This document shows, one piece after another, positions 2,980-60,327 of a DNA stretch of 64,000 nucleotides. Made by a program: the position numbers and the translations under genes. Below the pieces are notes generated by a model. The model was given only the letters and a program-made list of their open reading frames with translations. It searched no databases and was not told where the DNA came from. The stretch is from positions 104,797-168,796 of IMG/VR virus record IMGVR_UViG_3300035703_000012; one strand, given 5' to 3'. The DNA comes from a virus. The first letter of the stretch is position 1. Each line of letters starts with the position of its first letter.

Positions 2980-3010
2980 GGCGTAACCAGCGGACGGGTC
3001 TGCGGGCCTG

Positions 3011-3042
3011 CCCACTTTTTGCCCGAGGCTGCGCGCTACACT
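3011..3042 (+). promoter_or_regulatory. Putative promoter (CCCACTTTTT, 16-base spacer, TACACT)
   Basis: CCCACTTTTT at 3011-3020 is followed by 16 bases and then the -10-like TACACT at 3037-3042. The same arrangement occurs at 38028-38059 and, with small changes, at 30778-30809. The ATG of the next gene begins only six bases after the -10 and has no ribosome site, so the transcript may be leaderless. Confidence 0.5.
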
Positions 3043-3048
3043 GCGGCC

Positions 3049-40936: not shown

Positions 40937-42190
40937 ATGACCACCCCCGCCCTTTCCAAGACCGTCAGCTACTCGGGCCTGACCGTGTACGACGAGTGCT
41001 CGATGCTCTACAAGCTGCAGCGCGTCGACCGGGTGCTGCCGCCGATGGCCGACACCGAGGCCACGCGCATCGGGCAGTTCTGCCACACCTCGCTCGAGGA
41101 CTACTACGGCGACGAGACGGGTGCGCTGGAGAGCCCTTACCAGGCGCTGACCCGACCGGGGGGCATCTGGGACCAGGAGCTCGAGGCGTGCCAGCTCGCC
41201 ATGTTGCGACCGAAGCTGCAGGCCTACGCCCACCACACCACGGCCCTGTACGAGCGGGCCTCGGCCAGCTACAAGGGCAAGGACGCCATCCGCAAGAAGG
41301 ACGGCGGCGTCAGCGCGGCCCCGCACATGACCAAGGCCTGGACGGACTACGCGCGCCAGCACGGCTTGCCGCAGCTCGCCGACCAGATCGACCGCACGGC
41401 CGCCAAGGTGGCGCCGCACCGCTGGGAGGCCGTGAGCCTGGCGCAGGTCTACGCCGAGAGCCTGGGCATCATGTACCCCTACCAGCACCCGGCCGACATC
41501 GACGCCGTGGTGGCGATCGAGTTGCCCATCTCCGAGGTGCAGTTCCACGGCGCCGGCGAGGACAACCAGCCGCTGTACGACGCGCTGGGGCAGCCCGTGC
41601 CCACCAGCCGCGTGCGCGGGCCGCACCCGATGTACGTCGACCCGGACGGCCGCACGCCCGTGCTCAACGTGCTCTACCCCTTCTACCTGCCCGCGCTGGG
41701 GCCGGACGGCAAGCTGATGTCCGACGGCCAGGGCGACTTCGTGCGCCGCGACGACCTGCTCTTCACGGGCTACATCGACCTGGTGGCGCGCAACCCCAAA
41801 GGCGAGCTGCTCATCATCGACCACAAGACCAACGCGGGCGAGGTGCCCTCGCGCCACAAGATCAGCCGGCACGAGCAGATGCTCATCTACGGCTTCATGG
41901 TGACGCTGCTGGGAGGCGAGCAGCCTGCTTACGTGGGCATGAACCACCTGCGCTCCGGCCGGCTGATCCTCGCCGAGTTCTCGATGGCCCGCGCCCAGAT
42001 CGCCATGGAGCGCTTGCTCTCCATCGTGGCGGGCATCGAGAAGAAGGTCTTCGTGCGCCAGAACCCCGACGGCTACCACAGCCGCTGCGTGGTCAAGCCC
42101 TTCCGCGAGGGCGAGCCGCCCCGGCTCTGCGCGGGCCTGCCCCACTGTCACCCGGAGGTGGCCCAGCTCTACGACAAGATGCCCGGCTGA
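40937..42190 (+). CDS. RecB-like PD-(D/E)XK nuclease
   Basis: This is a 417-residue protein. It begins SYSGLTVYDECSMLYKLQ, the usual start of RecB/AddB/Cas4-type nuclease domains, with the active-site His in GQFCHTSLEDYY. FTGYIDLVAR near 276 supplies Asp, and LLIIDHKTN near 294 supplies D-x-K. A Gln/Tyr helix (HEQMLIYGF) follows, as in that family. Residues 90-250 are an insertion. Two C-terminal Cys/His may bind a metal cluster. It could trim DNA ends during recombination. GGAG precedes the ATG. Confidence 0.78.
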   Translation: MTTPALSKTVSYSGLTVYDECSMLYKLQRVDRVLPPMADTEATRIGQFCHTSLEDYYGDETGALESPYQALTRPGGIWDQELEACQLAMLRPKLQAYAHHTTALYERASASYKGKDAIRKKDGGVSAAPHMTKAWTDYARQHGLPQLADQIDRTAAKVAPHRWEAVSLAQVYAESLGIMYPYQHPADIDAVVAIELPISEVQFHGAGEDNQPLYDALGQPVPTSRVRGPHPMYVDPDGRTPVLNVLYPFYLPALGPDGKLMSDGQGDFVRRDDLLFTGYIDLVARNPKGELLIIDHKTNAGEVPSRHKISRHEQMLIYGFMVTLLGGEQPAYVGMNHLRSGRLILAEFSMARAQIAMERLLSIVAGIEKKVFVRQNPDGYHSRCVVKPFREGEPPRLCAGLPHCHPEVAQLYDKMPG

Positions 42191-42198
42191 CGCCGGGC
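42181..42198 (+). repeat. Perfect 7-base-pair hairpin over the nuclease stop codon
   Basis: GCCCGGC at 42181-42187 and GCCGGGC at 42192-42198 flank a four-base loop. There is no T-run, so it may stabilise the mRNA end rather than terminate. The rest of the 79-base gap carries a TTTATC element near 42227 and a GGAGGAG ribosome site. Confidence 0.45.
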
Positions 42199-42269
42199 AC
42201 GCCCTTCCTGGTTCGCTCCTGCCTGGCTTTATCGTCGCTCGCGACATCACCCGCCAAGGAGGAGCCTGG

Positions 42270-42659
42270 ATGCCCGCACCCAACCCCAAGCGCGACAAGG
42301 TGCTCAAGTACCTGCGGCAGTCGTTTCCCTACAAGGACGCGCTGACCAGCTGGGACGGCCGCGTGTACCCGTACGAGCTGGTGCGCGAAGCCGTCTACAA
42401 CCTGCGCGACAACGGCCCCGAGTTCTTGCGGGTGCTGCACTACTACCTGTTCACGCCGCTCTCGCGCACGCGCATCGCCGAGGAGGTCTGCTACGACGCG
42501 AGCACCGTCAAGCGGAAGCTCGACATCGCCGCCGACCACATCATGCAGTACCTGGAGCACCACGACCTGCCCACCCACGCGCTCTTCGAGGTGCGGGATC
42601 CCGACAGCCGCGAGGTGGAACAGCGGCGCTTTCCCAAGACCTTCCACACCCTCATCTGA
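42270..42659 (+). CDS. Sigma-region-4/ArpU-like HTH protein
   Basis: This is a 129-residue protein. Residues about 55-90, LRVLHYYLFTPLSRTRIAEEVCYDASTVKRKL, resemble the helix-turn-helix of sigma70 region 4 and of phage late-gene activators (RinA/ArpU type). The N-terminal part is basic and Tyr-rich. It could switch on late genes. The family call is tentative. GGAGGAG lies before the ATG. The stop overlaps the next tiny gene. Confidence 0.6.
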   Translation: MPAPNPKRDKVLKYLRQSFPYKDALTSWDGRVYPYELVREAVYNLRDNGPEFLRVLHYYLFTPLSRTRIAEEVCYDASTVKRKLDIAADHIMQYLEHHDLPTHALFEVRDPDSREVEQRRFPKTFHTLI

Positions 42660-42736
42660 TGCCCAGTACCTTCACCTGGTGGGATGTCATCCTCGTGGTG
42701 ACCCTGCTGGGGGTGCTGGTGTCCGAACAGCTCTAG
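42659..42736 (+). CDS. 25-residue single-pass membrane peptide
   Basis: A tiny frame starts by TGATG overlap with the HTH gene and reads MPSTFTWWDVILVVTLLGVL and five more residues. It is almost entirely one hydrophobic helix, with a Trp pair near the start and a Glu near the end. It has no ribosome site of its own, so it would depend on coupling. The product type resembles small phage membrane peptides that modulate host enzymes or lysis. It may also be a chance frame. Confidence 0.45.
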   Translation: MPSTFTWWDVILVVTLLGVLVSEQL

Positions 42737-42746
42737 CGGCGTGCTT

Positions 42747-43349
42747 ATGGACCATGTAGACGACTTTGCCGACCTTCCCATCGCGGACCTCGCCGAGCAG
42801 CCCATGCAGCTCGACGCGCAGCAGCACCGCAACCAGAAGTTCCTGGAGCTGGCCCAGGGCCTGCGCCAGCTGCCGCTGGGCAAGGGCCGGCAGGTCGCCA
42901 AGCTGGCGCAAACAGGCCAGAGCCTGCCCGTCATCGCGGAGAAGGTCGACAAGCCCATCGAGGAGGTCGCCCCGCTGGTCAAGGCCGTGAAGGCCCTGCC
43001 GGCCGAGGAGCAGCGGCCCTTCGCCGCCTTCGTCGGTCAGGCCGACCGCTCGGTCTTCGACCTCGAGCAGGGCTTGCAGGTGCTGCACGACGAGCTGGCC
43101 GCCATGCTCAAGCTCGTGGAGCACAACGATGAAATCAAGCTTCAGACCATCGCGGAGATGCGCCAGCTCTTCAAGCTGGCCAAGGACGTGATGCGGGACG
43201 CCACCTACCTCGAGCGCATCAAGAAGCGCCACGAGGAGGACATGGCCCTGGTCTTGCAGCACCTCGACCGCCTCAACCCCGAGGTGGCCGCGGAGCTGTT
43301 CAAGGCGCTGGAGGCTGAACGTGCCAAACGCAAGCTGCTAGGAGGTTGA
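42747..43349 (+). CDS. Unknown 200-residue coiled-coil-like protein
   Basis: The start could be the ATG at 42747 or the GTG at 42741; neither has a clear ribosome site. The acidic N-terminus (DHVDDFADLPIADLAEQ) is followed by a ParB-like-looking repeat GKGRQVAKLAQTGQSLPVIAEKVDKPIEEV, which may be a helix-turn-helix. Long charged helices follow to the end. No definite family. It is immediately followed by a phage protein of a recurring type. Confidence 0.55.
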   Translation: MDHVDDFADLPIADLAEQPMQLDAQQHRNQKFLELAQGLRQLPLGKGRQVAKLAQTGQSLPVIAEKVDKPIEEVAPLVKAVKALPAEEQRPFAAFVGQADRSVFDLEQGLQVLHDELAAMLKLVEHNDEIKLQTIAEMRQLFKLAKDVMRDATYLERIKKRHEEDMALVLQHLDRLNPEVAAELFKALEAERAKRKLLGG

Positions 43350-44736: not shown

Positions 44737-45354
44737 GTGAGCTGTGCAAGTAATGTCAAGTTCAACTTTTCTATTTTTGTAGCTGGACTTTTTTCACCTG
44801 TGTACTTGGTGGTCAGCCAATTTATGACATTTATAGTGCCGTCAGGGATAATGTTTACTTTTTTGTTTCTTCTAAACGCTTTAAGCCTTGGAGTCTTTTC
44901 TGACTTATTTATTTTCGCAATAGAATTATTAATAGACTCTTTTCAAACCCAAAAAACTCTTAATTGTTTGCTGGGGTTTTTTGGGATTCTGATCGGCTCA
45001 TTTGGTGCACTTTTTTGGTTTGATGAAAGTGATCCGCGTAAAATTCCTGAAATCACTGAAAATCGCTTCAGTTTTTTGGCGGGAGCTGCAATTGGTATTG
45101 GTGCAAGCTTGGTGGTTTATTGTTATCTCATAGACCGCATCTGGTCTAGATCAATTTTTACAAGCAATAACCCCGGTATGCTCCTGCTAATCCAGCTGTG
45201 GCCGTTGGCCTGCGTGCTGTACGCAATACTTTGCTACAACAGAGTGTGGCTCGGTCACTGGAACGCGACAATCGAAGGGCCTGCTGTTTTACAGACGCCT
45301 GAGCAAGCAGTATCTTCTACGCGCAGTGCCCGCGGGCCTGAAACTCGTGGATGA
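44737..45354 (+). CDS. AT-rich membrane protein, probably acquired
   Basis: This is a 205-residue protein with about five hydrophobic segments (residues roughly 10-30, 35-65, 78-95, 112-132 and 148-168), so an inner-membrane protein. Its DNA is far AT-richer than everything around it, with runs of T and A, which suggests recent transfer. The GTG start follows AAAGAGG. It has no operon partners and runs tail-to-tail into the giant gene with a 38-base overlap, so its last dozen residues are read antisense to that gene. A superinfection-exclusion or other moron role is a guess. Confidence 0.65.
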   Translation: MSCASNVKFNFSIFVAGLFSPVYLVVSQFMTFIVPSGIMFTFLFLLNALSLGVFSDLFIFAIELLIDSFQTQKTLNCLLGFFGILIGSFGALFWFDESDPRKIPEITENRFSFLAGAAIGIGASLVVYCYLIDRIWSRSIFTSNNPGMLLLIQLWPLACVLYAILCYNRVWLGHWNATIEGPAVLQTPEQAVSSTRSARGPETRG

Positions 45355-48300
45355 ACGGGTCCGGCGCGTCGCTGCGGCCCGGCGCCTTGGTCGGGTCGAT
45401 CAAGCAATCGGGCAGCCAGCCCTCGAACGCGTGGTACGTCACCTCCAGGATGTTGTCGCGCAAGCTGGCCGACACCTGGCTGGGTTTTTTGGGCCTCGGC
45501 TTGTGAGGATCCACCGCGGGGGCGGGCGCCACGGGCGCAGGCTGGCTCACGGTGGCCTTGCCACGCACCTCCACGCGGCTGGGGCGTCGCGCGGGCTTCG
45601 CCGCGCCGGCCTGGGCCCGGCGGTGCAGGCGCACCACCTCGCTGGTCAACGGCCGAACGGGTTCTTCGGGGTTGGCGTGCTCGGGCTTGGACTTGCTCCG
45701 GGTGGTTGCGGCGTGCGCCGGCTTCACGCCCAGCGCCAGGTCCAGCACGCTCTCGAACGCCACCTGCACGCCGAACAGACCCTGCTGGGCCTGGGTGGTG
45801 CGCGCCACCCGCGGTGCGGCGCTCTGCTGGGCCGGCTGGGCCGGCTGGGCGGACTGCCGACGCAAAAAGTGGTAGAACCCGAGCGTCTTCAGGTTGTGCA
45901 GGCGGTTTTCCTCGTAGCGGCCGATGTCCTCGTCTCTCTTCACGGCGTTGGGGCCCGCGTTGTACTTCGCCAGCGAGAGCGCCACGTTGCCGCGGGTGGC
46001 CCGCATGATGCTCGCCAGGTAGCGCGCGCCCGTGTAGACGTTGCGCTCCGGGTCGTACGGGTCGCGACCGACGCCGTAGGCCGCGCCGGTGCTGGGCATC
46101 AGCTGCATCAAGCCTTGCGCACCGGCCGGACTCAGCGAACGGGCGTTGCCCTCCGACTCGGTGAGCATTAGGGCCTTGAGCAGGCGCCAGTCGAGGCCGT
46201 TGTCCTTGGCTGCACGCTGCAACAGCCCGTCCCAGTCGTTCATGCTGCTGGCGAGCTTGACCTCGCGCGGCGTCAGCGGACGGCCCACCCTGTTGCCCGT
46301 GGGCGATGCCCCCGTCACCGTGGGGTTCTGCATCGTCTGGAAGAATGGCGACTGGCTGGGGTCCATCCGCTGCCAGACCTTGCCCACGAGCTTGTCCACC
46401 ATCACGTGGGCGTGCGCCCCGGTCGACTTGCCGGTGGAGCCCATCAGGCCCAGCACCTGGCCCCTGCGCACCTCCTGACCGACCTCCACGGTGCGGCTGT
46501 CCTGCATGTGCGCCACCGACACGCGGAAGCGCTCTCCGCCTGACGTCGTTTCGATCGTCACCATGTGGCCGTAGCCGCCTGCCCAGCCCGCTTCCACGAT
46601 CTTGCCGTCCCCGACGGCCAAGATGCGTGCGTCGCGCGGGTTCTCGGGCACCATGTCAAGGGCTAAGTGAGGCTTGTGCACGTGGTCGAGCGGGTGGTAG
46701 CGCATGCCGTAGCCGCTCGTGATGATCGCCCGGCTGGTGAACAGACCGCCGCCCGGCAACACCTCGCCCGGCGTCAGCGTGGGGCCGCCCCCGGCGGCCG
46801 ATGCGGCCGCAGACCGCCCTTGCGGGCTCTCCCCGAAGCGCAAGATGCTGCCGAGCATGTTCATCAGCCGCGGGGCAAAGGCCCCCGGCACGGCCCCCAG
46901 GCCGGTGGCGTCGCCATCCCGGTTGCGGATGGTCTTGCCGCCGAGATCCTCGCGGTGGCGCAGCTTGGGGCGCTTGCTCTCGTCGATGCGCACGGAAGGC
47001 TGGCTCGTGATGGGGTTGCCGCTGCTGTCGAGATGCCCCCAGTGCACGGGCTTGTTCTCGTCGATCATGGCGTAGGCCCGCTGCAGCGCCTCGGCCCGCA
47101 AGGCCAGCATCGCATCCGTGCCCGCGCCCACCGTGGAGAGCGAGGCAAACTGCCGATAGCTCTCGCCGTAGGGCGACACCGCGCTGCTCATGTGCGTGTC
47201 CGTCGGGAAGCTCGGCCGGTTGTCGAGCATCTCGCTCGGCAGCAGGTGGTTGAGCAGCGCCATCGGGTTCATCGACTTGGCAATCTGCTGCTGCTGCGTG
47301 TACTGCTCGTAGATGGCGTCTTGCATGTGCCCGAGGAACACGGGCGACATCCGTGCAAAGGCGTACCCGCTGCCGGGAGGCGCGTCGGCGGCCGGCATCC
47401 GCCAGGCGCTCGCGTTGGTCGAGGGGCTGAGAAAGCCCGTGGCCTCGCCCGGGCTGTAGAGCTGGTGCACCGCCGGCGACGTCGTCGCGTCCCGGTAGCC
47501 GACGTAGTCGATGAACCAGCGCACCGTGGACTTGATGAACCCCGGGCTGACAAAGCCCAGGGCCGCGCCTGCACTGGCACCCGCCAAGCCGGCGGCACCG
47601 ATGGCCCACAGCGGCTGGGTCATGAAGGCGGCGGCTCCCAGGCCCAGGATTCCCAGCGTGCCTGCGGCCAGGCTCATGGCCCAGCCGCGGTCTTCCGCCA
47701 GCTCCGAGCCCGTGCGCGGCTGCCTGGAGGCCTTCTCGTACGCCCAGGTGTTCAGGGCGTTGAACGTGGCCGGCAACGCGTTGCCCAGCTGCGCCATCGC
47801 CCGTCCCGACCAGCTTTTCTGGCTTTCGGCCAGCTTTCGCGCAAGCTCGGGGTTGTCGGTGTTTTTGGAGTTGAGCAGGTAGTCCGCGCCGAAGCCCAGC
47901 AGCCCGCCGGCAACCGCACCCACCGCGATGCCGACGGGACCGGCCGCGGCACCCGCCATCGCAAACGAGAGCGCGAACGAGGTGGTCAATCCGAACCCGT
48001 AGTGGCTGGCGAGCATGCCCACGCCGATGGCGGCTGCGCCAAGCCCAAGTCCTAAAAACCCAGCAGCAACTGCGGCGCCGCCAAAAGCGGAGATCGTGAG
48101 TCCCAGCGCCTCGGCGCCGAAGATAAAGCTGCCTGCCACAGCCGAACCGGCCAGGCCGAGCGTGGCACCTTGCTGGCCGTAGTAGTGCGCGACCTCCGTG
48201 TCGAAGCCGCCAGCCACAAGGCCGCCCGCGTAAAAAGTCCCGTAACCCAGCAGCATGCTCGCACCCTGCACGAAGCCCGCCGTGCGCGCGCCGATGTAGC

Positions 48301-51300
48301 GCGTGTTGGCCCCCTGCTGGGCCGGCGTGCGCATGTTCTGCATGTCAAAGCGCGCCGAGATCGCGCTGTTCGTCACCGCAGGAACCCGGCCCGAGTTGGC
48401 CACGGACACGCGCAGCATCTCGGTGCCGCCTTGCAACAAGCTTGCCACCGCGCTTTCGGCCGCGATCATCCGCATTCCGTCGTTGCGGGTGCTCAGCGCG
48501 GTGCTGGCAGCCAGGTAGTTGGAGAACTCGTCGCGCTTCGAATCCACCGCCGCCAGCGCGCGCAGGCTGGCCATGCCCTTGGCCGCCATGTTGAGCTCGG
48601 TGTACAGGCTCAGCGCGTTGAAGTAGAAGCCGCCGCTCAGCAAATTGTCGCCGATGCCCGTGCCGACCGCCATGGCGTAACCGCGGCCCGTGAACAGGTC
48701 CTGCACGGCCTCGGTGACGGCGTCGCGTCCCACCGCAAACGCGCCGGGGCCGAACGAACGCGTGTTGATGTCGTTCAGGGTGCCGCGCAACGCGTTGACG
48801 CCCGCCTCGAGCCGCGTGGCGTCCAGCGGCGAGATGGTCCCGCCCGTGCTGTGGCTGCGCTCGTAAATGAGGTTGACCAGCGCCTCGAGCTGCCGCTGGT
48901 CGTTGGCGTCCAGGCCGTGGCTGCGCAGGTGCATCAAGACCGCGTTTTGCTCGGCCAGCGAAAACACCGCCACGGGCGTCAAAGACGATGCACCAACAGC
49001 CCCGCGCACGGAGTCGATCATCTGCCGGCTGTAGCTCGCAGCCGTCGTGCGGCTCAGGTAGGCGCGGTAGAAAGCACCGCCGTCGAAGTTCAAGAACCCG
49101 CCTTGCAGGGCACGGGCCGCCACGTCCAGCCAGCCGGCTGCCAGCATGTAGCCGCGCCCGCCCCCCAGCGTCACCACCAAACGGCTGCCGCCCGTGGCGT
49201 TCATGCCGGTGTAGCCGAGGCTCTCCACGATGTCGCCCGTGCGCGGCGTGGCGCCCCCGCCGGTGGTGAAGCCGCGGATGTTGCTCGCGTCTTCTTGGAA
49301 CGCCGTCAAGGCCCCGTCCAGGTAGGTCAGCACCTGCTGGCCGCTCACACCCGCCAGGCCGGGTGCGTGCGCGCTCAAGCTGGAGCCCAGGCTGGTGGCC
49401 AGGTCGTGGATGGTCATGGCGCTGAGGGCCGTGCGCATCTGCGCGGAGGTCTGTCCGGCCCCGACCTGGGTGGTCACCCAGCGCTGCAGCATGTCGCGCA
49501 GATCCGTCACGTTGGCCACGCGCTGGTTGATGCTTTCCGCGCCCCGGTAGCCGTGCTTGAACCAGCTGTCGAGCTCGGTCAGGGTGCTGTGGCGCAGGCT
49601 GTCGCTGGCCCGGATGCCGTCGAGCACGGGGTCGCCCAGCGGCAGGGGGGCCATCGCGGCCGTGCGGCGGTTGACATCGACAATCATGCGCTCGACGTGG
49701 CTGCCGAGCTCGCGCATCTGCCGGAGCCGGTTGTCCACCATGTTGATGAGGTCGTTGCCGCGGGGCGTGGAGCCTGTGGTGATGATGGCGCGCGGAAGCC
49801 GGCTGAGGTCCGTCGTGTGCAAGGCGTGCGTGAGGTTTCGCATAAAGCCCTGGTCCAGCACGGCGTTGGGCGTGAAGTGGTTCATGTGCACCGTTACAGG
49901 GGTGACGGCGCCTGCCGCGTTGATGGTGTTGAACGTGCGGGTCTGGCCCGCGCCTGCAGGATCCATGAAGTGCATGGCCGCCCCGCCGTAGGTGTAGAAC
50001 TGCGAACCGATGCGGTAGGTCCACAGCCGGCTGCTGGCCCTGTAAGCCGCCCACAGGCTTCCGTAGTTGACGGTGTGCCCGGCCTGCCGGCGTGCCACCG
50101 TGCTTGACGAAGGCGTGGTCGGCGCCAGGCCCATCGCGTTGGCGGAAGGATCCCAGCTCCAGGTCTGGTAGAAAAGGTTGCTTGCATCCGGGGCGTTGAA
50201 CAGGTTTGAGATGAACCGACCAGGTCGTGTGGTGGCGCCGCCGGCTGCGGCGATGCGCACGTTTCGTGCGTGGTACAACGCGTAGTAAGCCATCGCGCCG
50301 CTCACGGCCCCCATGAAGAGGCCGAACGCAGCCGGCAAGTTGGAGCCCTTGCTGCCGCCCATCAGCTCCTCGCGCGACAGGCCCACGGGGCGCATCATGT
50401 CGTTGCCGTTGCCGCTGATGCTGTACTCGTACTCCTCGAGATCGCCGCTGGCGTTGCCCGCCACCGACCGTGCGTTGAGGCGCAGGTCCTCGCTGAACTG
50501 CTTGCCAAACCCCATCGTGTAAGTGAAGAAGCCCTTGAGCAGCATGCCAGAAGGCTTGCCGGGCGCCATGTTCTCGTAGATGTTGGCCTCGCCCTGCGCG
50601 TTGCGGTGGTCGAAGTAGTTGAGCAACCGCCCGTTGTTGCCGTCGGCCGTGAAAAACGCCACCATGTATCGACGCCGGGCCAGCTCGGCCTGGGCCGCAG
50701 GCCCCATGGCGTCCAGCCCCATCTGCTCGTTGTAGAGGGCGCCGACCTTCAGGCTGATGGCCGGCCCGCGCACGAAGCGCTGGCGCGTGCGCACGGGGTT
50801 GCCCTGCCGGGCGACGCCCGCCACCTCCCGCACGGCCGCCACGTCTTGGTTGCGGTCCTTGACGTTCTGCTGGCCTTCGACCAGGGAGTACTGGAACACG
50901 CCCGCAATCAAGGACTTGAACAGCGAGTCCTGCGCGAAGACCGAGGTGTGACCCGATTCTTGCTGCTGCGAGGGGTTGAGCAGCGTGTAATCCTTGCCCC
51001 CGATGTTCTGCACGGAAGCACCGAGGCTGCTGGTGCCGGCGAACAGCGTGGTCGCCAGGGTGTAGTAGTAGCCCAGGGAGGTTGTGAGGCTGTAGGCGAG
51101 CTGGCTGCCGAGAACCGCCAGAGGTTCGCCCGAGTGGGCCTTTTCCCAGACCGTGGCGCGAACAGCATCCGGAAAAAACGCGTCTTCCTGGCGGAAGCGC
51201 ATCATTTCCTCTTGAGGCTGGCTCGGCAGGCGGATGCCGAGAATCTGCGTGACGAAGTGTCGCGCGAGCCCGTGCGTGAAGTGGTTGCGAACAGGCGCCA

Positions 51301-54300
51301 TGAAGAAGTCGTCGTCGCGGGGCGCGAAGAAGCTCACGACCGAATCGGCCAGGCCTTGTGCCCCGCCGTGGGTGCCCTTGCTGGCGAAGGCCAGCAGCGT
51401 GGGGCCAGCCACGAACGCCACTGCCGCCACATCCGTGAGCAGGCTGAAGCGCCGGCGGGGCGAGCCTGGCGCGTAGTGACGGCCGTAGTAGGTGCGGTTG
51501 TAGAAGTCGTCGGCAAAGCGCGCGCTGGGCGAGCCCGGGGCCGCGTGCAGCGTCGCTGCGCGCCGGCGCGCGGCAAACGACCACTCCTGGATGCCGTACA
51601 TCCAGCGCACCAGGCCCCGCAGACGCTGCTGCGTCGCGTTCGGGGTGTTGCCGCCGTGCCAGGGCCCGCTCGGGTTGTTGAAGCTTGCATCGAACGCGGC
51701 CACGCGCTCGTGCGCGAGCGGCGTGCTGCGGCGGATGTTGTTGAACTCCGCGAACGCGCTGGCGTTGCCCATGAACCCCACGAGCAGGTTGGCAGCCGTG
51801 AGCCGCGCGAACTGCAGCACCGCCTGCGATGCCACGAAAGGCAGGGTGGCCGTCGCCCGGATGGCGGAGTACCCGTAGCCGAGTAGCCGGGTGTACGCGT
51901 CCGGCGCCAGCGCGTGCGGCGGCGTCAGCGGCGCCAGCGTGCGGCCGAAGCGCGCGGCCATCCAGCCCATAAAACCGTGCAACCCACGCACGACCAGGTC
52001 CAGGCCGCGCAAAGCGAGCAGCGGCAGCAGCAGGCTTTCGACCATGTTGCCCGGCTCGTACTTGAAGTGGTAGGCGCCGGGGTCGCTTTGCGCCGCGTTG
52101 GCCGTGTAAAGCCCGACACCCGCCCCCACCGCCAGGCCCACGGGCAGGGTGAAGCGCGAAACCAGCCCCATCAGCGACAGCATGGCATGGGTGCCCGCCA
52201 TCGCCAGTCCGCCAGCCACCAGGCCCCGCTGCACGGGGCTCGACTCGCCTTCTTCGCGGTGCAAATAAAGCGGCAGCTTGTGCCCCGTGCCGAACTGGAT
52301 GTTGACAGGCCCCTGCAGCGTCAGGCTGAAGTGCGTGTCCGCCCCAACGTACAGCGCCGACGCGGTAGACGTGCTGATGAACGGCACGGGAACCGGCATC
52401 TGGAAGCTGACGGCAAACGCCCCTCTGCCCGAGAGCTCGCGGCGCATCGGGTGCGGCAGGCTGTACATGCCAAGCAGCCCCAGCTCGTGCCCCAGGCGCT
52501 GGATGCCGCCCGCGCCGTGCTGCTTGTGCTCCTGCCGGATGCGCGCCATCAAGCCCGCGAACCGGTCGTCCGCCATGCCCGGCAGGGCCGTGCGCAGGTA
52601 CAGCTCGGCGTCGGCTTCGCTCTTGCCCTGCTTGAAGAGCCGGGCCGTGTTGAGCAGGACCTGCGCCTGGTACGACACCAGGGTGCTGGCTTCCGTGCTG
52701 TAGCCCGCGTAGGCGTAGCGCGCCTTTTGCGGCAAGTGCGAGGCGACGTAGGCGTTGTAGCCGGCAGCAGCCAGACCGAGCAGCGCGCCGTAGGCGCGCA
52801 CCTTGTTCGAGGTAAACAGCCCCAGCGCAGGCCGGTTGGCTGAAGGAAAGAATACGGCGGCTCCCGCGAAGCCGAAGGCCGCGCCTGCCGCCAGGCCGTA
52901 GGTGTAAGGCGTCTGCTGGGTGGCGTTAAAGCCGGTCGAAAAAGCTTTTTGCGTGGAGTACCAAGCGGCGCTCAGCGGAATGTCAATCAGTTTGCTCAGC
53001 GGGTTGTCTCCAAGCAGCAAACGTGCAAACCAGACCTGACCGGCCTCGGTCTGGACCTGCAGCTGGGCCTGACGGGCTTGCCCGGCGCCGTTGTCGGTGA
53101 TTTCAAGAATCCGGCTGCGGGTGTCGAGCACCGCTCCCATCTGTGTGAACACGTCGATGGTGGCTGCCTGACCGACCAGGCCTGAGATCTGGTCCAGGGC
53201 GACACCGGCCAGCAGCAGCGGCGCCAGGAGGCCGACGCCCATGCGCCCGCGTCCCGGCCGGGTGAACATCTCTCCGAAGCCGCCCACAAGCGTTTCGCCT
53301 ACGCTGCGGCCGTAGTGGGTGAGGCCTCCGCGTATGCCGTGGCGTCGCATGTCATAGAGCAACGCAGGGGGCGCAAAGGCAATCCGAGCCAGCCCCTTGA
53401 GTCGCTCGTTGCTGCGGGCGAACGTGTTGAAGCTGCCCATGATGCCTTCTTCCGTGTGCATGAACAGACGCAAGAGAGGCCGGTCGTTGACCCAGGTGTT
53501 CCAGATCTCCGTGCCGCGAATCAGGTTCTGCGCAAACGAGCCGCTGGCGTTGGTGTGGAAGTGGTCGGCAATCTCCTCGAAGACGTTCGCCATGCCGCCT
53601 TGCGGGATGATGCTGTCGTAGACCTCGCCGATGCGCCCCATGATCTCGCGCGTGGCGATGCTGAACAGGCTGTTCATGGTATTGGCGGCGCTCTGCGTGA
53701 GGATCTGCCCGACGGCTGCCACACCCCGCGTGACGCTGGAGAACCCGCCTGTAACGGGCGAGCTCAGGTGGTACGCGAGGGCGGTGTCGAACGACGCACG
53801 GGCCCTCGCGGCCATGCCCAGCGCCGGCAAGGCCACCAGGCGGAACAGCGCGGCCGTGAGGAACATGCTCGTGATCAGGTCGGTGCCGATTTTGGTCAGG
53901 TTTTCGACGGGGCCCGCCTTGTACACCTGTTCGGGCAGCAGCTCGTGACCGCCCCCGCGCAGGCCCTCGTCGAGGTACCGGGCGCCCAGCAGCGCCGCGT
54001 TGGTGAACACGCCGCGGTCGCCCATCTGGGTGGGGCCCATCCCGAAGAACATCGTCGGCCAGAAGCTCGCGCCGAACGTGCGCTGGCCCAGCCCGTAATC
54101 AAACCGCTTCATGGCGCCCGTCATGAAGTTGTCGGGGTTTTCCTGGAGGTACATCCCGTCTTGCTTGACGCGGTACAGGCTCAGCAGCCCGCCGATGTAG
54201 CTGCGCAGGAACGGGCTGCCTTGCGTCTCGCTCAGGTGCACGGCTTCGGCCGCTTGCTGCTGCAAGGCCTCGTAGCCCTTGCCGCGCCCTCGGTAGTAGC

Positions 54301-55666
54301 GGCTTAGGCCGTACATGAACGCGCTGGTGTCCTTGAAAGTTCGCAGCGTCACGATGGGCTGGAAGTCGATGTCCGAGCGGTGGCTGGGCGTGAGCAGCTC
54401 CACCCCGACCGGGCGCGCGATGCGCACGAAGCCGTTGTCGCGGGCCACGTAGCCCGTCAAGTAAGGCTGGTTGGTCTGGTACTCGCGCACCACCCGGGTG
54501 CCGGCCTGGTCCGTGTGGATGGCCCGTGCGCCGTACATGCGCGCCAGCTCCGCGTCCTTGCCGACGTACAGCGCGTCCGAGACGCTGACGCCGTCGGCGG
54601 GCTTCAGGAACTGGGCCTTGAAGCGCATGGAGCCCGCGATGATGTCGTCCTTGCGGCTGCTGGCGATGAGGTTGAAGTGCGACATCTGCTGCGAGCCCAC
54701 GCTGACGAGGTGCGAAAGGGCCCGCTCGTTGTGGTGGCGCACGTGCACGCGGTTGCCGTACTCCTGCTGCAGGTAGCTGATGAGCGCCTGGGTGGCCGCC
54801 AGCGACTTGGCTGGCAGCGCCGCGCCCGTGACGTCCACCTGATTGATTTCCAGCGTGACCTGCAGCTTCGGGTTGGCCTGCAGCGCCGCGCTGAGCACGG
54901 GCCCCATCTCGGGGCTGAAGTTGGCCGAAGACACGTAGAGATCGCCGTCTTTGGCCAGCGCTTTCACCCGCTCAGCCAGCGCCGGCGCCACGTCCGTGTC
55001 GGGCCCCGAGAGCAGGAAGTGCTGGAGCCCCGTCGGCTTCTTGCCGGCGTCGGCGCCCTCGTTGAACTTCCAGTTGAGGATGCGCTCGACCTCGGCGACC
55101 TCTTTGGGGTCTGTCAGGATCTTGTAGAGGTTGACCTGGTTGATGCGCCGCGCTTCGCCCCACTCGTTGGTCTTGCTCGAGTGGCCGAAGCCCGTCTCCG
55201 TGGCGTTGGCCGTGAGCACCAGCGCCACCTTCTGCGCGCCGTTGCTGAACAGGGCCAGCTTGTCGTGGAAGTAGCTGCCTCCGCGCAGGCGGTAGCTGGC
55301 GTCGCCGTGCTGGACCGTGCCGCCCGGCTGGTTGTCGCCGTCGGGGCGGTAGATGTGAGCCCGCGCGTTCTTGTAGGCCTCCGGTGAGATCCAGCCGTCC
55401 GGGTCTTTCTTGTCGATGCCCGTCGAGCCGTAGAAGAGCTTGAAGTCCTTGCCGGCCGGCGCGCGCAGGATGCTGCGCTCGATAGTGCCCAGGCCGGTGT
55501 CGCGCACGCTGAAGGTGCTGTAGCGGACCTTGTCCGAGCCCTCGATGAGCCGGACGAGGCCCTGCTCGAAGGCGGCGTCCGCCCGACCGGACAGCGCGAG
55601 AGAACGCCCGCCTTCCAGGCTGAGACGTCCACTGCCGTCCGCTTCGGTGAGGCTCCAGCTGCCCAT
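45317..55666 (-). CDS. Giant multidomain protein with PLD-like, M23 peptidase and lytic transglycosylase domains
   Basis: This 3,449-residue protein is the only minus-strand gene. Residues about 64-354 look PLD-like: FHDKLALFSNG followed by LTANATE matches an HKD motif, while a second HFN..GSM site lacks the Lys. From about 600 to 2710 there are many hydrophobic stretches, notably 1145-1190, 2465-2595 and 2662-2708, the last two long and Gly/Ala-rich. Residues about 2975-3100 are an M23 peptidase with the H..D site, a VAHMQ strand and HAH near 3085. Residues about 3150-3270 are an SLT lytic transglycosylase with Glu in TESEGN, GLMQLMPST and AKYNAGP. A low-complexity Pro/Ala/Lys tail ends it. 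The ATG at 55666 follows AAAGGA. It is probably a virion protein that opens the cell wall, perhaps ejected with DNA or acting as a tape measure. Confidence 0.8.
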   Translation of the reverse strand: MGSWSLTEADGSGRLSLEGGRSLALSGRADAAFEQGLVRLIEGSDKVRYSTFSVRDTGLGTIERSILRAPAGKDFKLFYGSTGIDKKDPDGWISPEAYKNARAHIYRPDGDNQPGGTVQHGDASYRLRGGSYFHDKLALFSNGAQKVALVLTANATETGFGHSSKTNEWGEARRINQVNLYKILTDPKEVAEVERILNWKFNEGADAGKKPTGLQHFLLSGPDTDVAPALAERVKALAKDGDLYVSSANFSPEMGPVLSAALQANPKLQVTLEINQVDVTGAALPAKSLAATQALISYLQQEYGNRVHVRHHNERALSHLVSVGSQQMSHFNLIASSRKDDIIAGSMRFKAQFLKPADGVSVSDALYVGKDAELARMYGARAIHTDQAGTRVVREYQTNQPYLTGYVARDNGFVRIARPVGVELLTPSHRSDIDFQPIVTLRTFKDTSAFMYGLSRYYRGRGKGYEALQQQAAEAVHLSETQGSPFLRSYIGGLLSLYRVKQDGMYLQENPDNFMTGAMKRFDYGLGQRTFGASFWPTMFFGMGPTQMGDRGVFTNAALLGARYLDEGLRGGGHELLPEQVYKAGPVENLTKIGTDLITSMFLTAALFRLVALPALGMAARARASFDTALAYHLSSPVTGGFSSVTRGVAAVGQILTQSAANTMNSLFSIATREIMGRIGEVYDSIIPQGGMANVFEEIADHFHTNASGSFAQNLIRGTEIWNTWVNDRPLLRLFMHTEEGIMGSFNTFARSNERLKGLARIAFAPPALLYDMRRHGIRGGLTHYGRSVGETLVGGFGEMFTRPGRGRMGVGLLAPLLLAGVALDQISGLVGQAATIDVFTQMGAVLDTRSRILEITDNGAGQARQAQLQVQTEAGQVWFARLLLGDNPLSKLIDIPLSAAWYSTQKAFSTGFNATQQTPYTYGLAAGAAFGFAGAAVFFPSANRPALGLFTSNKVRAYGALLGLAAAGYNAYVASHLPQKARYAYAGYSTEASTLVSYQAQVLLNTARLFKQGKSEADAELYLRTALPGMADDRFAGLMARIRQEHKQHGAGGIQRLGHELGLLGMYSLPHPMRRELSGRGAFAVSFQMPVPVPFISTSTASALYVGADTHFSLTLQGPVNIQFGTGHKLPLYLHREEGESSPVQRGLVAGGLAMAGTHAMLSLMGLVSRFTLPVGLAVGAGVGLYTANAAQSDPGAYHFKYEPGNMVESLLLPLLALRGLDLVVRGLHGFMGWMAARFGRTLAPLTPPHALAPDAYTRLLGYGYSAIRATATLPFVASQAVLQFARLTAANLLVGFMGNASAFAEFNNIRRSTPLAHERVAAFDASFNNPSGPWHGGNTPNATQQRLRGLVRWMYGIQEWSFAARRRAATLHAAPGSPSARFADDFYNRTYYGRHYAPGSPRRRFSLLTDVAAVAFVAGPTLLAFASKGTHGGAQGLADSVVSFFAPRDDDFFMAPVRNHFTHGLARHFVTQILGIRLPSQPQEEMMRFRQEDAFFPDAVRATVWEKAHSGEPLAVLGSQLAYSLTTSLGYYYTLATTLFAGTSSLGASVQNIGGKDYTLLNPSQQQESGHTSVFAQDSLFKSLIAGVFQYSLVEGQQNVKDRNQDVAAVREVAGVARQGNPVRTRQRFVRGPAISLKVGALYNEQMGLDAMGPAAQAELARRRYMVAFFTADGNNGRLLNYFDHRNAQGEANIYENMAPGKPSGMLLKGFFTYTMGFGKQFSEDLRLNARSVAGNASGDLEEYEYSISGNGNDMMRPVGLSREELMGGSKGSNLPAAFGLFMGAVSGAMAYYALYHARNVRIAAAGGATTRPGRFISNLFNAPDASNLFYQTWSWDPSANAMGLAPTTPSSSTVARRQAGHTVNYGSLWAAYRASSRLWTYRIGSQFYTYGGAAMHFMDPAGAGQTRTFNTINAAGAVTPVTVHMNHFTPNAVLDQGFMRNLTHALHTTDLSRLPRAIITTGSTPRGNDLINMVDNRLRQMRELGSHVERMIVDVNRRTAAMAPLPLGDPVLDGIRASDSLRHSTLTELDSWFKHGYRGAESINQRVANVTDLRDMLQRWVTTQVGAGQTSAQMRTALSAMTIHDLATSLGSSLSAHAPGLAGVSGQQVLTYLDGALTAFQEDASNIRGFTTGGGATPRTGDIVESLGYTGMNATGGSRLVVTLGGGRGYMLAAGWLDVAARALQGGFLNFDGGAFYRAYLSRTTAASYSRQMIDSVRGAVGASSLTPVAVFSLAEQNAVLMHLRSHGLDANDQRQLEALVNLIYERSHSTGGTISPLDATRLEAGVNALRGTLNDINTRSFGPGAFAVGRDAVTEAVQDLFTGRGYAMAVGTGIGDNLLSGGFYFNALSLYTELNMAAKGMASLRALAAVDSKRDEFSNYLAASTALSTRNDGMRMIAAESAVASLLQGGTEMLRVSVANSGRVPAVTNSAISARFDMQNMRTPAQQGANTRYIGARTAGFVQGASMLLGYGTFYAGGLVAGGFDTEVAHYYGQQGATLGLAGSAVAGSFIFGAEALGLTISAFGGAAVAAGFLGLGLGAAAIGVGMLASHYGFGLTTSFALSFAMAGAAAGPVGIAVGAVAGGLLGFGADYLLNSKNTDNPELARKLAESQKSWSGRAMAQLGNALPATFNALNTWAYEKASRQPRTGSELAEDRGWAMSLAAGTLGILGLGAAAFMTQPLWAIGAAGLAGASAGAALGFVSPGFIKSTVRWFIDYVGYRDATTSPAVHQLYSPGEATGFLSPSTNASAWRMPAADAPPGSGYAFARMSPVFLGHMQDAIYEQYTQQQQIAKSMNPMALLNHLLPSEMLDNRPSFPTDTHMSSAVSPYGESYRQFASLSTVGAGTDAMLALRAEALQRAYAMIDENKPVHWGHLDSSGNPITSQPSVRIDESKRPKLRHREDLGGKTIRNRDGDATGLGAVPGAFAPRLMNMLGSILRFGESPQGRSAAASAAGGGPTLTPGEVLPGGGLFTSRAIITSGYGMRYHPLDHVHKPHLALDMVPENPRDARILAVGDGKIVEAGWAGGYGHMVTIETTSGGERFRVSVAHMQDSRTVEVGQEVRRGQVLGLMGSTGKSTGAHAHVMVDKLVGKVWQRMDPSQSPFFQTMQNPTVTGASPTGNRVGRPLTPREVKLASSMNDWDGLLQRAAKDNGLDWRLLKALMLTESEGNARSLSPAGAQGLMQLMPSTGAAYGVGRDPYDPERNVYTGARYLASIMRATRGNVALSLAKYNAGPNAVKRDEDIGRYEENRLHNLKTLGFYHFLRRQSAQPAQPAQQSAAPRVARTTQAQQGLFGVQVAFESVLDLALGVKPAHAATTRSKSKPEHANPEEPVRPLTSEVVRLHRRAQAGAAKPARRPSRVEVRGKATVSQPAPVAPAPAVDPHKPRPKKPSQVSASLRDNILEVTYHAFEGWLPDCLIDPTKAPGRSDAPDPFIHEFQARGHCA

Positions 55667-55683
55667 TGGTTTCCTTTGTAACA

Positions 55684-57051: not shown

Positions 57052-60000
57052 ATGTCAGAGCCCGATCGCAGCCCGGAGGCTGCTCCTTTTTACGTGCGTC
57101 CCCTCGACAAGAAGATGGGCACGGCCCTGGCCCGGCGCACGGTGTTCCGCACCCAGGACCAGGAAGACTGGGGCCGGGTGGCCGCCCGCGTGGCCGAGGG
57201 CAACACCAGCCTGGTGCCCGGCAGCGAGGCCGACTTCGCCCCGATGCGCGACGCGATCGCCAAGGGCGCGCTCCTGATGAGCGGCCGGCACCTGCAGCAC
57301 GGCGACCCCGGCCAGAAGCACCGAAACATGGAGGTTTATACAAATTGCGCCGTGGCGGCCTCGAGCTTCATGACCTTCTACCTGCTGCTTAACGGCTCGG
57401 GCGTGGGCCGCGACTACAGCGATGCCATGATGCGCGTCGACTGGGAGCAGGCCCCGGAGCTCGTGCTGGTGTGCCGGCCTGATCACCCCAACTTCGACGC
57501 CGCCGTGTTCGTGGCGCCCGCCGAGGCGCTGCAGCGGCTTGCGGGGCAATCGCACGTCTACTTCATGGTGCCAGACTCCCGCGAGGGCTGGGCCATGGCG
57601 GCCGAGAAGTATGAGGTGATGACGTACGAGGCCGTGCACGCCGAAAGCACGCTCGTGCTGGACTTCTCGTACGTGCGGCCGGCCGGCAGCCCCATCGCCG
57701 GCATGCAGAACCGGCCTGCCTCGGGCCCCGTGCCCACGGCCCAGGCCTTCGCGAAGATCGCGCAGGTGAAGGGCCAGGGCCTGCCGCGCTGGAAGCAGGC
57801 CATGCTGGTCGACCACGCCCTGGCCGAGTGCGTCGTGGTGGGCGGGGCCCGGCGCTCCGCACGCATGAGCACCAAGTACTGGGCCGACCCCGGCGCCATC
57901 GAGTTTGCGCACATCAAGGCGCAGCACGGGCTGTGGAGCTCGAACAACAGCATCATCGCCACGCAGGCGCTCTTCGACGGGCTCAAGCAGAAGAACAGCT
58001 GGGCGCAGCAGGTCTTCAAGGCCGTCACGGAGGCCAGCTACTGGGACCTGACGGGTGAGCCTGGTTTTATCTGCGTCGACAACTTTGCGCCTGATCCGAT
58101 CGACTACAGCATCTATGCCGATGGCAACTACGTGGGATCGGAGCTGTACGAGCTGCAGCCCAGCACTCGGCCGTACATGGCCGAGCTGGCGCAGGCCGCG
58201 CAGCACATGCCGTACAGCCACTTGACTAACCCGTGTGTCACCGCTGACACGTGGATCCAGACTACAGAAGGTCCGCGCCAGGTGGCCGAGCTCATCGGCA
58301 AGCCCTTCACGGCGCTGGTCGGACAGCAAGGCCACGCCGCCACCGGTTTCTTCCAGACGGGCGTCAAGCCGGTCTTCCGGGTTGAGACCCAGCGGGGCTA
58401 CAGCTTGCGGCTGACAGACAACCACCAGGTGCTGGTCGAGCGCAAGCGGTCCAGGAAGCTCGACGGTGGGTTCAATATCGAGCACGCCTGGGTGGAGGTC
58501 AAGGACCTCAAGCCCGGCGACAAGCTTGTCATCGACAACCACCGGGGCACGTCTTGGGAAGGCGACGGTTCTTTCGAGGAAGGCTGGCTCCTGGGGCAAA
58601 TCGTGGGCGATGGCGGCTACAACGCCGACAAGTCGTACAAAGCCTACGTGCGCTTCTGGGGTCCCAACAAGGAAAAGCTTCAGCAGGTCAGCGCCCAGTA
58701 CGCCATGGCGGCCGGGTTGAAGTCGCGCAGCGACTGCACGGGCGTGAACAACGCTCACCACCAAACCAGCCAGTACGGTTCTGTGGCGCTGGAGCGGCTG
58801 GCTTCCAGCTACCTCAGCCCCCAAGGCAAGCAGCTGATGCCTGCCCTTGAAAAGACCAGCTCGGGCTTCTACCGAGGCTTCTTGCGTGGCTTCTTCGATG
58901 CCGACGGCACGGTCCTGTTCAACACCGAGAAGGGCCGTTCCGTTCGGTTGGCGCAGTCCGACCTGGGTCGGCTGCAGGTGGTCCAGCGCATGCTGGCCCG
59001 TCTTGGGATTGCCTCCACGCTGTACCAAAATCGCAGGGCTGCTCGTCAGTCTTTGCTGCCGGACGGCCGAGGCGGGCTCAAGCTTTACCCGACCAAGGCC
59101 GTGCACGAGCTGGTGATTGCCCGGGACAACCTCCTGGTTTTTGCCGAGCAGGTGGGATTCAACGATCCGGCCAAAGCTGAAAAGCTGGAGGCCTGCGTCT
59201 CGAGCCTGGGTGTAAAGCGTCAGGCTTACCGCGACGCGTTCACCAGCCAGGTCACGGCGATCATGCCGGACGGCGTCGAGCCGGTGTATGACTGCACCGT
59301 CGACGACGTTCATCGCTTTGATGCCAACGGCCTGGTGGTGCACAACTGCGGTGAGATTTCGCTCAACATCCTCGGCGGGTTCTGCGTGATCGGGGACGTG
59401 GTGCCCTACCACTGCGACACGCTGGAGGAGGCGGAAGAGACCTTCCGCATCGCCGCGCGGGCGCTCATCCGGGTCAACACGATGCGCTCGGTGTACCCCC
59501 GCGAGGTGGCCCGCACCAACCGCATCGGCGTGAGCTTCACGGGCATCCACGAGTTCGCCTTCAAGCAGTTCGGGCTGGGCTTCCGCGAGGTGCTCGACGA
59601 GCACGGCGCGGGCAAGCCCTTCTGGGAGGCCCTGGCGCGCTTCTCGCGGGCCGTGAAAGCCGAAGCGAAGGCCTACGCCACGGAGCTCGGCATGGCCGTG
59701 CCGGTGACGGACACGACGGTCAAGCCGGCGGGTTCGACCTCCAAGCTGTTCGCGCTCTCGGAGGGCGCCCACCTGCCTTCAATGCGGGAGTACCTGCGCA
59801 ACATGCAGTTCCGCAGCGACGACCCGCTGGTCGAGCAGTACCGGGCCAAGGGCTACCCCGTGCGGGAGCTGCGGACCTACCAAGGCACCAGCATCGTGGG
59901 CTTCCCCACCCAGCCGACCATCTGCCGGCTCGGGATGGGCGACAAGCTCGTGACGGCGGCCGAGGCCACGCCCGAGGAGCAGTACCGCTGGCTGATGCTG

Positions 60001-60327
60001 CTCGAGAAGTACTGGATCCGCGGCGTGGACGAACAGGGCCAGCCCCTGCCCGACACCGGCAACCAGATCAGCTACACGCTCAAGTACGACCCCGCCCAGA
60101 CCACCTACAAGGACTTCGTCCGGATGATGGTCAAGTACCAGAGCCAAATCCGCTGCTGCTCCGTCATGCCGACGACGGACACCTCGGCCTACGAGTACCT
60201 GCCCGAACAGCCCTTCCGGTCGGTGGGCCAGTTCCAGGCCATCATCGGGGCCATCACGGACCCCGAGGCCCTGGAGGACATCGACATGGAGCACCTGCAG
60301 TGCCAGTCGGGCGCCTGCCCCATCTAG
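57052..60327 (+). CDS. nrdJ: Class II (adenosylcobalamin-dependent) ribonucleotide reductase with intein
   Basis: This is a 1,091-residue precursor; 720 remain after splicing, close to monomeric RTPR-type NrdJ (about 740). It reduces ribonucleotides to deoxyribonucleotides using B12. NPCGEISL is the active-site Cys/Glu block, split by the intein just before the Cys. Upstream are the NCAVAAS Cys and GSGVGRDYS segments, and the C-terminus CQSGACPI holds the dithiol that regenerates the enzyme, as in RTPR. The ATG at 57052 lies after GAGGA. With ThyX, Tmk and dUTPase it lets the phage run its own dNTP supply, provided the host has B12. Confidence 0.9.
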   Translation: MSEPDRSPEAAPFYVRPLDKKMGTALARRTVFRTQDQEDWGRVAARVAEGNTSLVPGSEADFAPMRDAIAKGALLMSGRHLQHGDPGQKHRNMEVYTNCAVAASSFMTFYLLLNGSGVGRDYSDAMMRVDWEQAPELVLVCRPDHPNFDAAVFVAPAEALQRLAGQSHVYFMVPDSREGWAMAAEKYEVMTYEAVHAESTLVLDFSYVRPAGSPIAGMQNRPASGPVPTAQAFAKIAQVKGQGLPRWKQAMLVDHALAECVVVGGARRSARMSTKYWADPGAIEFAHIKAQHGLWSSNNSIIATQALFDGLKQKNSWAQQVFKAVTEASYWDLTGEPGFICVDNFAPDPIDYSIYADGNYVGSELYELQPSTRPYMAELAQAAQHMPYSHLTNPCVTADTWIQTTEGPRQVAELIGKPFTALVGQQGHAATGFFQTGVKPVFRVETQRGYSLRLTDNHQVLVERKRSRKLDGGFNIEHAWVEVKDLKPGDKLVIDNHRGTSWEGDGSFEEGWLLGQIVGDGGYNADKSYKAYVRFWGPNKEKLQQVSAQYAMAAGLKSRSDCTGVNNAHHQTSQYGSVALERLASSYLSPQGKQLMPALEKTSSGFYRGFLRGFFDADGTVLFNTEKGRSVRLAQSDLGRLQVVQRMLARLGIASTLYQNRRAARQSLLPDGRGGLKLYPTKAVHELVIARDNLLVFAEQVGFNDPAKAEKLEACVSSLGVKRQAYRDAFTSQVTAIMPDGVEPVYDCTVDDVHRFDANGLVVHNCGEISLNILGGFCVIGDVVPYHCDTLEEAEETFRIAARALIRVNTMRSVYPREVARTNRIGVSFTGIHEFAFKQFGLGFREVLDEHGAGKPFWEALARFSRAVKAEAKAYATELGMAVPVTDTTVKPAGSTSKLFALSEGAHLPSMREYLRNMQFRSDDPLVEQYRAKGYPVRELRTYQGTSIVGFPTQPTICRLGMGDKLVTAAEATPEEQYRWLMLLEKYWIRGVDEQGQPLPDTGNQISYTLKYDPAQTTYKDFVRMMVKYQSQIRCCSVMPTTDTSAYEYLPEQPFRSVGQFQAIIGAITDPEALEDIDMEHLQCQSGACPI
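58234..59346 (+). mobile_element. LAGLIDADG intein within the reductase
   Basis: The intein is 371 residues, from Cys1 (CVTADTWIQ) to a C-terminal HN followed by the extein Cys. Block B is TDNHQVLV, block F is VYDCTVDDVHRF and block G is ANGLVVHN. A homing endonuclease of the LAGLIDADG class lies between, with motifs LLGQIVGDGG and GFFDADG, both with the catalytic Asp. It splits NP|CGEI, a known hot spot for reductase inteins. The intact motifs suggest active splicing and possibly active homing. Confidence 0.92.

What the first reader, a model, noticed from the sequence alone, without database searches (positions are those of the whole stretch)
45317..55666. A 3,449-residue single-gene transcription unit with an unfamiliar domain plan
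One gene fills over 10 kb on the opposite strand to all neighbours. It joins a PLD-like N-terminus, about 2,000 residues rich in hydrophobic stretches, an M23 peptidase and a lytic transglycosylase. I know of no named phage protein with this plan. The membrane-like middle and wall hydrolases suggest an ejected virion protein that builds a channel across the envelope, like T7 gp16 but far larger. A tape-measure role is the main alternative. At 1.5 angstrom per residue it would imply a tail near 500 nm, but tape measures are usually helical.
Basis: partly seen in the sequence, partly recalled or inferred. Interest (0 to 1): 0.88.

Follow-up and report, generated by a model that had tools for sequence, protein, structure and literature searches.

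The report
Giant phage entry protein, nuclease-like head
A contractile-tailed phage encodes a 3,449-residue protein that joins a nuclease-like head, a long membrane-prone body and two wall-cutting enzymes; it belongs to a fast-evolving, previously unnamed family of giant late proteins that probably enter the bacterium with the phage DNA, although nobody has yet found one in a virus particle.

Summary
One ORF, window 45317-55666 (-), encodes 3,449 aa: a PLD-like head, a hydrophobic-rich body, and intact M23 and SLT domains. The window is part of a 168.8-kb phage record, a myovirus distantly related to Microcystis phage Ma-LMM01. The gene opposes all its window neighbours but lies on the same strand as the head/tail cluster elsewhere in the record. 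Sequence searches found no relatives. Synteny found a family: a giant late gene beside or downstream of terminase and convergent with the same exonuclease/replication genes in five other phage records (2,667-5,784 aa, including Ma-LMM01 gp120). The closest relative (G006, 2,942 aa) matches collinearly at the PLD head, one body motif and the SLT domain. Hydrolases come and go, and in one member the head is swapped for a staphylococcal nuclease. Most likely it is an ejected virion protein that opens the wall and crosses the inner membrane, perhaps with a second giant (PLD plus RNA-polymerase-type DFDGD motif). A tape-measure role is less likely: it lies outside the tail module, varies in length by modules, and relatives' tails are too short. 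No virion data exist, and channel formation is inferred. New variant of a known kind.

The parts
45317..55666 (-). giant gene P0001, 3,449 aa, ATG start
55672..55677 (-). AAAGGA ribosome-binding site
   Evidence: read from sequence
55052..55282 (-). PLD-like half 1 (res 129-205), HxK = H134/K136, 'LTANAT' in the place of GSxN
   Evidence: leave-out HMM E=3.4e-6; G006 relative score 93 vs 500 shuffles max 67
54629..55012 (-). PLD-like half 2 (res 219-346), HxK motif degenerate (SHLV)
   Evidence: alignment A8; hhalign 129-346 vs G006 64-268
46817..54589 (-). long body (res 360-2950), hydrophobic-rich, no database family
52217..52339 (-). body motif 'FSLTLQGPVNIQFGTGHKLPLYL' (res 1110-1150), shared with relatives
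   Evidence: 0/500, 1/500 and 1/500 shuffles reach the score against G006, G001 and My-WqHQDG; collinear in hhalign
47549..48109 (-). most hydrophobic block (res 2520-2706), four TM-like segments
46391..46669 (-). Peptidase M23 domain (res 3000-3092)
   Evidence: Pfam PF01551 E=2.9e-17; PDB M23 hits
45926..46222 (-). SLT lytic transglycosylase domain (res 3149-3247)
   Evidence: Pfam PF01464 E=2.4e-22; matches G006 giant 2699-2801 E=1.6e-9
40937..43349 (+). convergent neighbours g180 (exonuclease), g181, g182: the syntenic anchor of the family
   Evidence: homologs at the same place in Ma-LMM01, G001; g180 and g182 in G003, g180 in G006
57052..60327 (+). ribonucleotide reductase gene on the other flank (intein-containing); the same order giant(-)-RNR(+) in G001

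Best explanation
P0001 is a late, virion-associated ejection protein of an Ma-LMM01-related myovirus. It is made late and packaged, then leaves the particle with or ahead of the DNA. Its C-terminal SLT and M23 enzymes cut glycan strands and peptide cross-links of the wall. Hydrophobic segments of the body insert in the inner membrane and help protein and DNA cross. Its N-terminal PLD-like module, swapped for a staphylococcal nuclease in a relative, is the part that reaches the cytoplasm or acts on nucleic acid. It probably works beside a second giant of the same phage (record 64129-74199, PLD-like plus a DFDGD RNA-polymerase-type motif). Shown: gene, domains, catalytic residues, family by synteny, module swapping. 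Inferred: virion presence, ejection, membrane channel, nuclease activity, partnership.
For: Tailed contractile phage with sheath, baseplate, head and portal genes all on the strand of P0001. Positional orthologs sit directly after TerL in G006 and G003 and one gene away in Ma-LMM01 (gp118-gp119-gp120), always convergent with the same exonuclease/replication genes. Collinear sequence matches to the G006 giant at head, body motif and SLT. Intact M23 and SLT. PLDc_2 over cut-off in the My-WqHQDG homolog (5.6e-13) and seen in G006 (9.4e-5). SNase in place of PLD in L016, whose body is 71% identical to My-WqHQDG. TM-like segments are enriched in P0001 and scarce in the second giant. The second giant has a DFDGD motif conserved in Ma-LMM01 gp080 and My-WqHQDG. 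Precedents: N4 ejected vRNAP and channel proteins (PMC12633501); P23-45 vRNAP fused to a metallopeptidase/TM-bearing TMP (PMC10770324).
Against: No virion proteomics or infection data for any member. The body (about 2,500 aa) has no significant similarity even to syntenic relatives, apart from one motif. The second PLD catalytic motif is degenerate. TM-like content is modest. AF2 models of the head are low confidence (pLDDT 36). Hydrolases are absent by Pfam from the My-WqHQDG homolog and from G001 for M23, so they are not essential to the family's role.
Confidence: 0.66

Rival explanations
1. P0001 is the tape-measure protein: it sets tail length, is ejected first, and its hydrolases and hydrophobic segments open the envelope, as in P23-45.
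For: Tape measures often carry M23/SLT and hydrophobic segments; the SLT region's best PDB sequence hit is a tape measure (9b45) and weak PHROG tape-measure matches exist. No tape measure is firmly identified in this group: g60 (866 aa, helix-rich, between tube and baseplate) is only a positional candidate.
Against: The gene lies outside the tail module, at the terminase/replication junction, in all six phages. Length ranges from 2,667 to 5,784 aa, and two members with 71% identical bodies differ by about 940 aa through a head-module swap. MaMV-DH01 carries a 98.7% identical copy of the 2,898-aa gp120 but its tail is 230-260 nm (PMC9927357), against about 435 nm at 1.5 A per residue. Gly 11% and Pro 4.8% argue against a continuous helix.
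Confidence: 0.13
2. P0001 is a packaged cargo/effector whose main task is inside the host (nuclease or 'polyvalent' conflict protein); the wall hydrolases only aid its own passage.
For: Swappable nuclease-type heads (PLD, SNase), very fast sequence evolution, huge variable members such as G003 (5,784 aa); polyvalent proteins are a known theme (PMC5512222).
Against: The second PLD motif is degenerate in P0001; the hydrophobic body and two intact hydrolases point to the envelope; the polyvalent-protein paper's text does not mention PLD, M23 or SNase.
Confidence: 0.14
3. P0001 is not a virion protein but a lysis or intracellular remodelling factor made late.
For: M23 and SLT also occur in endolysins; several PHROG hits are endolysin families; virion presence is untested.
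Against: 3,449 aa with a PLD-like head is unlike any endolysin; hydrolases are missing in several syntenic relatives, whereas lysis is needed in all.
Confidence: 0.05

Closest known systems
Ma-LMM01 gp120 (YP_851134, phrog_29513) and My-WqHQDG WOL31340
   Same: Same genomic place (terminase side, convergent with the g180-g182 homologs), giant size, PLD-type HxK near the N-terminus, TM-like segments
   Different: No significant full-length sequence similarity; no M23/SLT in WOL31340; gp120 matches no functional PHROG. Both annotated only as hypothetical.
G006 giant (IMGVR_UViG_3300020057_001228, 2,942 aa)
   Same: Directly after TerL, PLD-like head, body motif and C-terminal SLT all collinear with P0001
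   Different: No M23 by Pfam; otherwise very divergent body
T7 gp16 internal virion protein (phrog_342)
   Same: SLT domain; proposed ejection and envelope crossing
   Different: Only the C-terminal SLT region matches phrog_342; podovirus core protein; no PLD or M23 (own knowledge)
N4 gp50/gp51/gp52 ejection proteins
   Same: Giant ejected polypeptide working with channel-forming proteins (PMC12633501)
   Different: gp50 is a single-chain RNA polymerase; P0001 has no polymerase motif; no sequence relation found
Thermus phage P23-45 gp96 (vRNAP-TMP fusion) with gp64 nvRNAP
   Same: Giant with metallopeptidase and TM segments, plus two RNA polymerases per phage (PMC10770324)
   Different: Here the polymerase motif lies in a separate giant (record 64129-74199) and the hydrolases in P0001; P0001 is outside the tail module

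Membership tests
Terminase-linked giant family (Ma-LMM01 gp120-like) | Late-strand giant on the terminase side, convergent with the exonuclease/replication block | tested here: met
Terminase-linked giant family (Ma-LMM01 gp120-like) | Sequence homology to at least one other member | tested here: met
   G006: PLD head 0/500 shuffles, body motif 0/500, SLT E=1.6e-9, collinear
Terminase-linked giant family (Ma-LMM01 gp120-like) | Significant full-length homology to gp120 itself | tested here: inconclusive
   Best profile scores not above shuffled controls
PLD superfamily | HxK motif followed by GSxN-like strand in half 1 | tested here: met
   H134/K136, LTANAT; leave-out HMM E=3.4e-6
PLD superfamily | Second HxK motif (needed for catalysis) | tested here: not met
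   SHLV in place of HxK; so PLD-like, activity doubtful
Peptidase M23 | Profile match with zinc-binding and catalytic His/Asp | tested here: met
   E=2.9e-17; H3000/D3004/H3085/H3087
SLT lytic transglycosylase | Profile match with catalytic Glu | tested here: met
   E=2.4e-22; E3170
Tape-measure protein | Encoded in the tail module between tube and baseplate | tested here: not met
Tape-measure protein | Length matches tail length | tested here: inconclusive
   No tail measured for this phage; mismatch in relative MaMV-DH01
Ejected internal virion protein (T7 gp16 / N4 type) | Present in virions and ejected into the host | not testable with these tools
   No proteomics available
Virion RNA polymerase | DxDGD or T7-type polymerase motif | tested here: not met
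   No D.DGD in P0001; it is in the second giant

The most novel reading that the evidence does not exclude
Ma-LMM01-related contractile phages carry a two-giant entry machine. One giant (P0001/gp120 type, 2.7-5.8 thousand residues) cuts the wall, crosses the membrane and carries a swappable nuclease head. The other (gp080 type) joins a PLD-like nuclease to a two-barrel-type RNA polymerase. Together they couple envelope crossing, attack on host nucleic acid and first transcription.
Probability: 0.28. Interest if true: 0.85.

Novelty: new variant of a known kind. Interest (0 to 1): 0.62.

Why it matters
Giant ejected proteins are known mainly from short-tailed (N4, T7, crAss-like) phages and one siphovirus. 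A syntenic, rapidly evolving giant family with exchangeable nuclease heads and wall hydrolases in contractile phages, including the long-studied Ma-LMM01, would assign a testable function to some of the largest unannotated phage genes. It would also give a system for asking how proteins over 300 kDa pass a tail tube. In Ma-LMM01-type phages, where no phage polymerase has been reported in the papers read here, the partner giant points to an overlooked virion polymerase.

Tried and rejected
Direct DNA/tblastn searches of P0001 in INPHARED and pattern scans of IMG/VR and GTDB found nothing. The two giants of this phage show no significant mutual similarity. Profile-profile comparison with gp120-type proteins first looked promising (E=0.004), but shuffled controls scored as high, so I do not use it. 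The same holds for a body-motif HMM built without P0001. My first guess that phrog_6700 is gp120 (same length, 2,898) was wrong: gp120 is phrog_29513. AF2 on the head, alone and with three sequences, gave pLDDT 36; Foldseek on it is uninformative. Pfam Rpb1_2 and PDB profile searches gave no support for RNA polymerase homology of the second giant or gene 82 beyond the DxDGD motif. WOL31396, first taken as the gene-82 homolog by position, is not one.
Full report
What is there. The ORF at window 45317-55666 (-) is real: 3,449 codons, an ATG with an AAAGGA site, steady codon-position GC, and a chance probability near 10^-35 for a random frame. Pfam finds only Peptidase_M23 (3008-3092, 2.9e-17) and SLT (3149-3247, 2.4e-22). 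Catalytic residues of both are intact.

Where it lies. The window is positions 104797-168796 of a 168,796-bp virus record. The rest of the record holds a myovirus late cluster on the (-) strand: terminase, wedge, sheath, capsid, protease, portal. P0001 is on that strand, embedded in (+) strand replication/nucleotide genes. So 'opposite to all neighbours' means a detached late gene.

Kinship. Capsid and one other gene (gene 82) match only Ma-LMM01-type cyanophages and, for the capsid, Microcoleus phage My-WqHQDG. A proteome comparison finds shared TerL, portal, capsid, protease, sheath, tube, wedge, polymerase, helicase, primase and exonuclease homologs. P0001 itself finds no homolog by BLAST in these phages beyond stand-alone M23 proteins.

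Finding the family by place. In Ma-LMM01 the 2,898-aa gp120 follows terminase gp118/gp119 and converges on gp123-gp125, the homologs of g182, g181 and g180, which converge on P0001 here. My-WqHQDG has a 4,151-aa gene there. A scan with the second giant found G001 (194.6 kb) and G002; a TerL scan found G003, G004, G006 and G007. G001 has a 2,667-aa gene (-) beyond the g180-g182 homologs, followed by RNR (+) and then TerL (-), the same order as here if the record is circularly permuted. G006 (2,942 aa) and G003 (5,784 aa from the first ATG) have the giant immediately after TerL, converging on g180 homologs.

Homology beyond place. P0001 132-260 against the G006 head scores 93, versus a maximum of 67 in 500 shuffles. 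An HMM of half-1 PLD segments from G006, G003, G001 and My-WqHQDG, with P0001 left out, finds P0001 139-191 at 3.4e-6 as the best of about 200 phage proteins. A body motif (P0001 1110-1150) matches G006 (0/500), G001 (1/500) and My-WqHQDG (1/500). SLT matches G006 2699-2801 at 1.6e-9. hhalign orders all three collinearly, and the head score exceeds 60 window-shuffled controls. The segments for the head HMM were chosen after seeing the motif, so its E-value is optimistic; the shuffle test against G006 does not depend on that choice. Two wider tests failed: an HMM of the whole head region and one of the body-motif region, each built without P0001, did not find it. Elsewhere the body is too diverged to test. 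Membership of gp120 itself rests on place, size and PLD-type motif.

Modules move. PLDc_2 is over Pfam's cut-off in My-WqHQDG and weak in G006. L016 is 71% identical to My-WqHQDG over 2,963 residues but carries a staphylococcal nuclease domain (3.9e-12) where My-WqHQDG has its hydrophobic/PLD part; the first about 22 residues before it are conserved. G003 has SLT then M23, P0001 M23 then SLT, G006 SLT only, and My-WqHQDG and L016 neither; G001 has no M23 anywhere. In P0001 the first HxK is intact (H134/K136) and the second degenerate (SHLV), so nuclease activity is doubtful here.

The partner. Record 64129-74199 encodes 3,356 aa with a weak PLDc_2 match (3.8e-4) and 'LGDFDGD', conserved at the corresponding place in Ma-LMM01 gp080 and My-WqHQDG, with a related motif in G006 and orthologs in G001/G002 with PLDc_2. 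Gene 82 and Ma-LMM01 gp064 share 'NPLxWxAANEGDADGDQ'. A virion plus non-virion RNA polymerase pair is known from P23-45, where searching virion proteins for DxDxD was how the vRNAP was found. Here the polymerase assignment is by motif, conservation and context only.

Mechanism. Best reading: an ejected late protein that cuts wall and crosses membrane, with a nuclease-type head. Steps shown: domains, late-strand family, module exchange. Steps inferred: packaging, ejection, membrane insertion, partnership. The tape-measure rival is weakened by gene place, modular length changes and the 230-260 nm tail of MaMV-DH01, whose copy of gp120 is 98.7% identical to the 2,898-aa protein. It stays open because no tape measure has been proved in this group.

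Verdict. Real, unusual, and more interesting as a family than as a single gene; not categorically new, because ejected giants are an established kind.

Noticed in passing
record 64129-74199 (L008:229-10299 +), outside the window: Second giant (3,356 aa): PLD-like head and conserved LGDFDGD motif, beside the portal, ortholog of Ma-LMM01 gp080; candidate virion RNA polymerase not reported for Ma-LMM01-type phages in the papers read here.
   Followed up: partly
record 77649-82076 (L006:5849-10276 +): Gene 82 (1,475 aa) and Ma-LMM01 gp064 share 'NPLxWxAANEGDADGDQ': candidate non-virion RNA polymerase.
   Followed up: partly
L016:638-10264 and L017 (IMG/VR): Relative of My-WqHQDG WOL31340 in which a staphylococcal nuclease replaces the PLD part at the N-terminus, after a conserved ~22-residue N-terminal segment that could be a targeting tag.
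   Followed up: partly
L096:254-17608 (-), G003: A 5,784-aa (or longer) positional ortholog with SLT and M23 at about residues 2500-2850 and about 2,900 further residues of unknown, partly repeated content.
   Followed up: no
window 57052-60327 (+): B12-type ribonucleotide reductase gene interrupted by an intein with a LAGLIDADG domain.
   Followed up: no
window 44737-45354 (+): AT-rich, 205-aa multi-pass membrane-protein ORF that overlaps the stop of P0001 by 38 bases; composition unlike the rest of the phage.
   Followed up: no
L005:8708-9454 (-), record about 62.5-63.3 kb: Integrase-like gene (PHROG integrase, E=1.7e-15) next to the portal gene.
   Followed up: no
window 63122-63221 (-): Single predicted tRNA-Ala (ggc), unusually long (100 nt), near the record end.
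   Followed up: no
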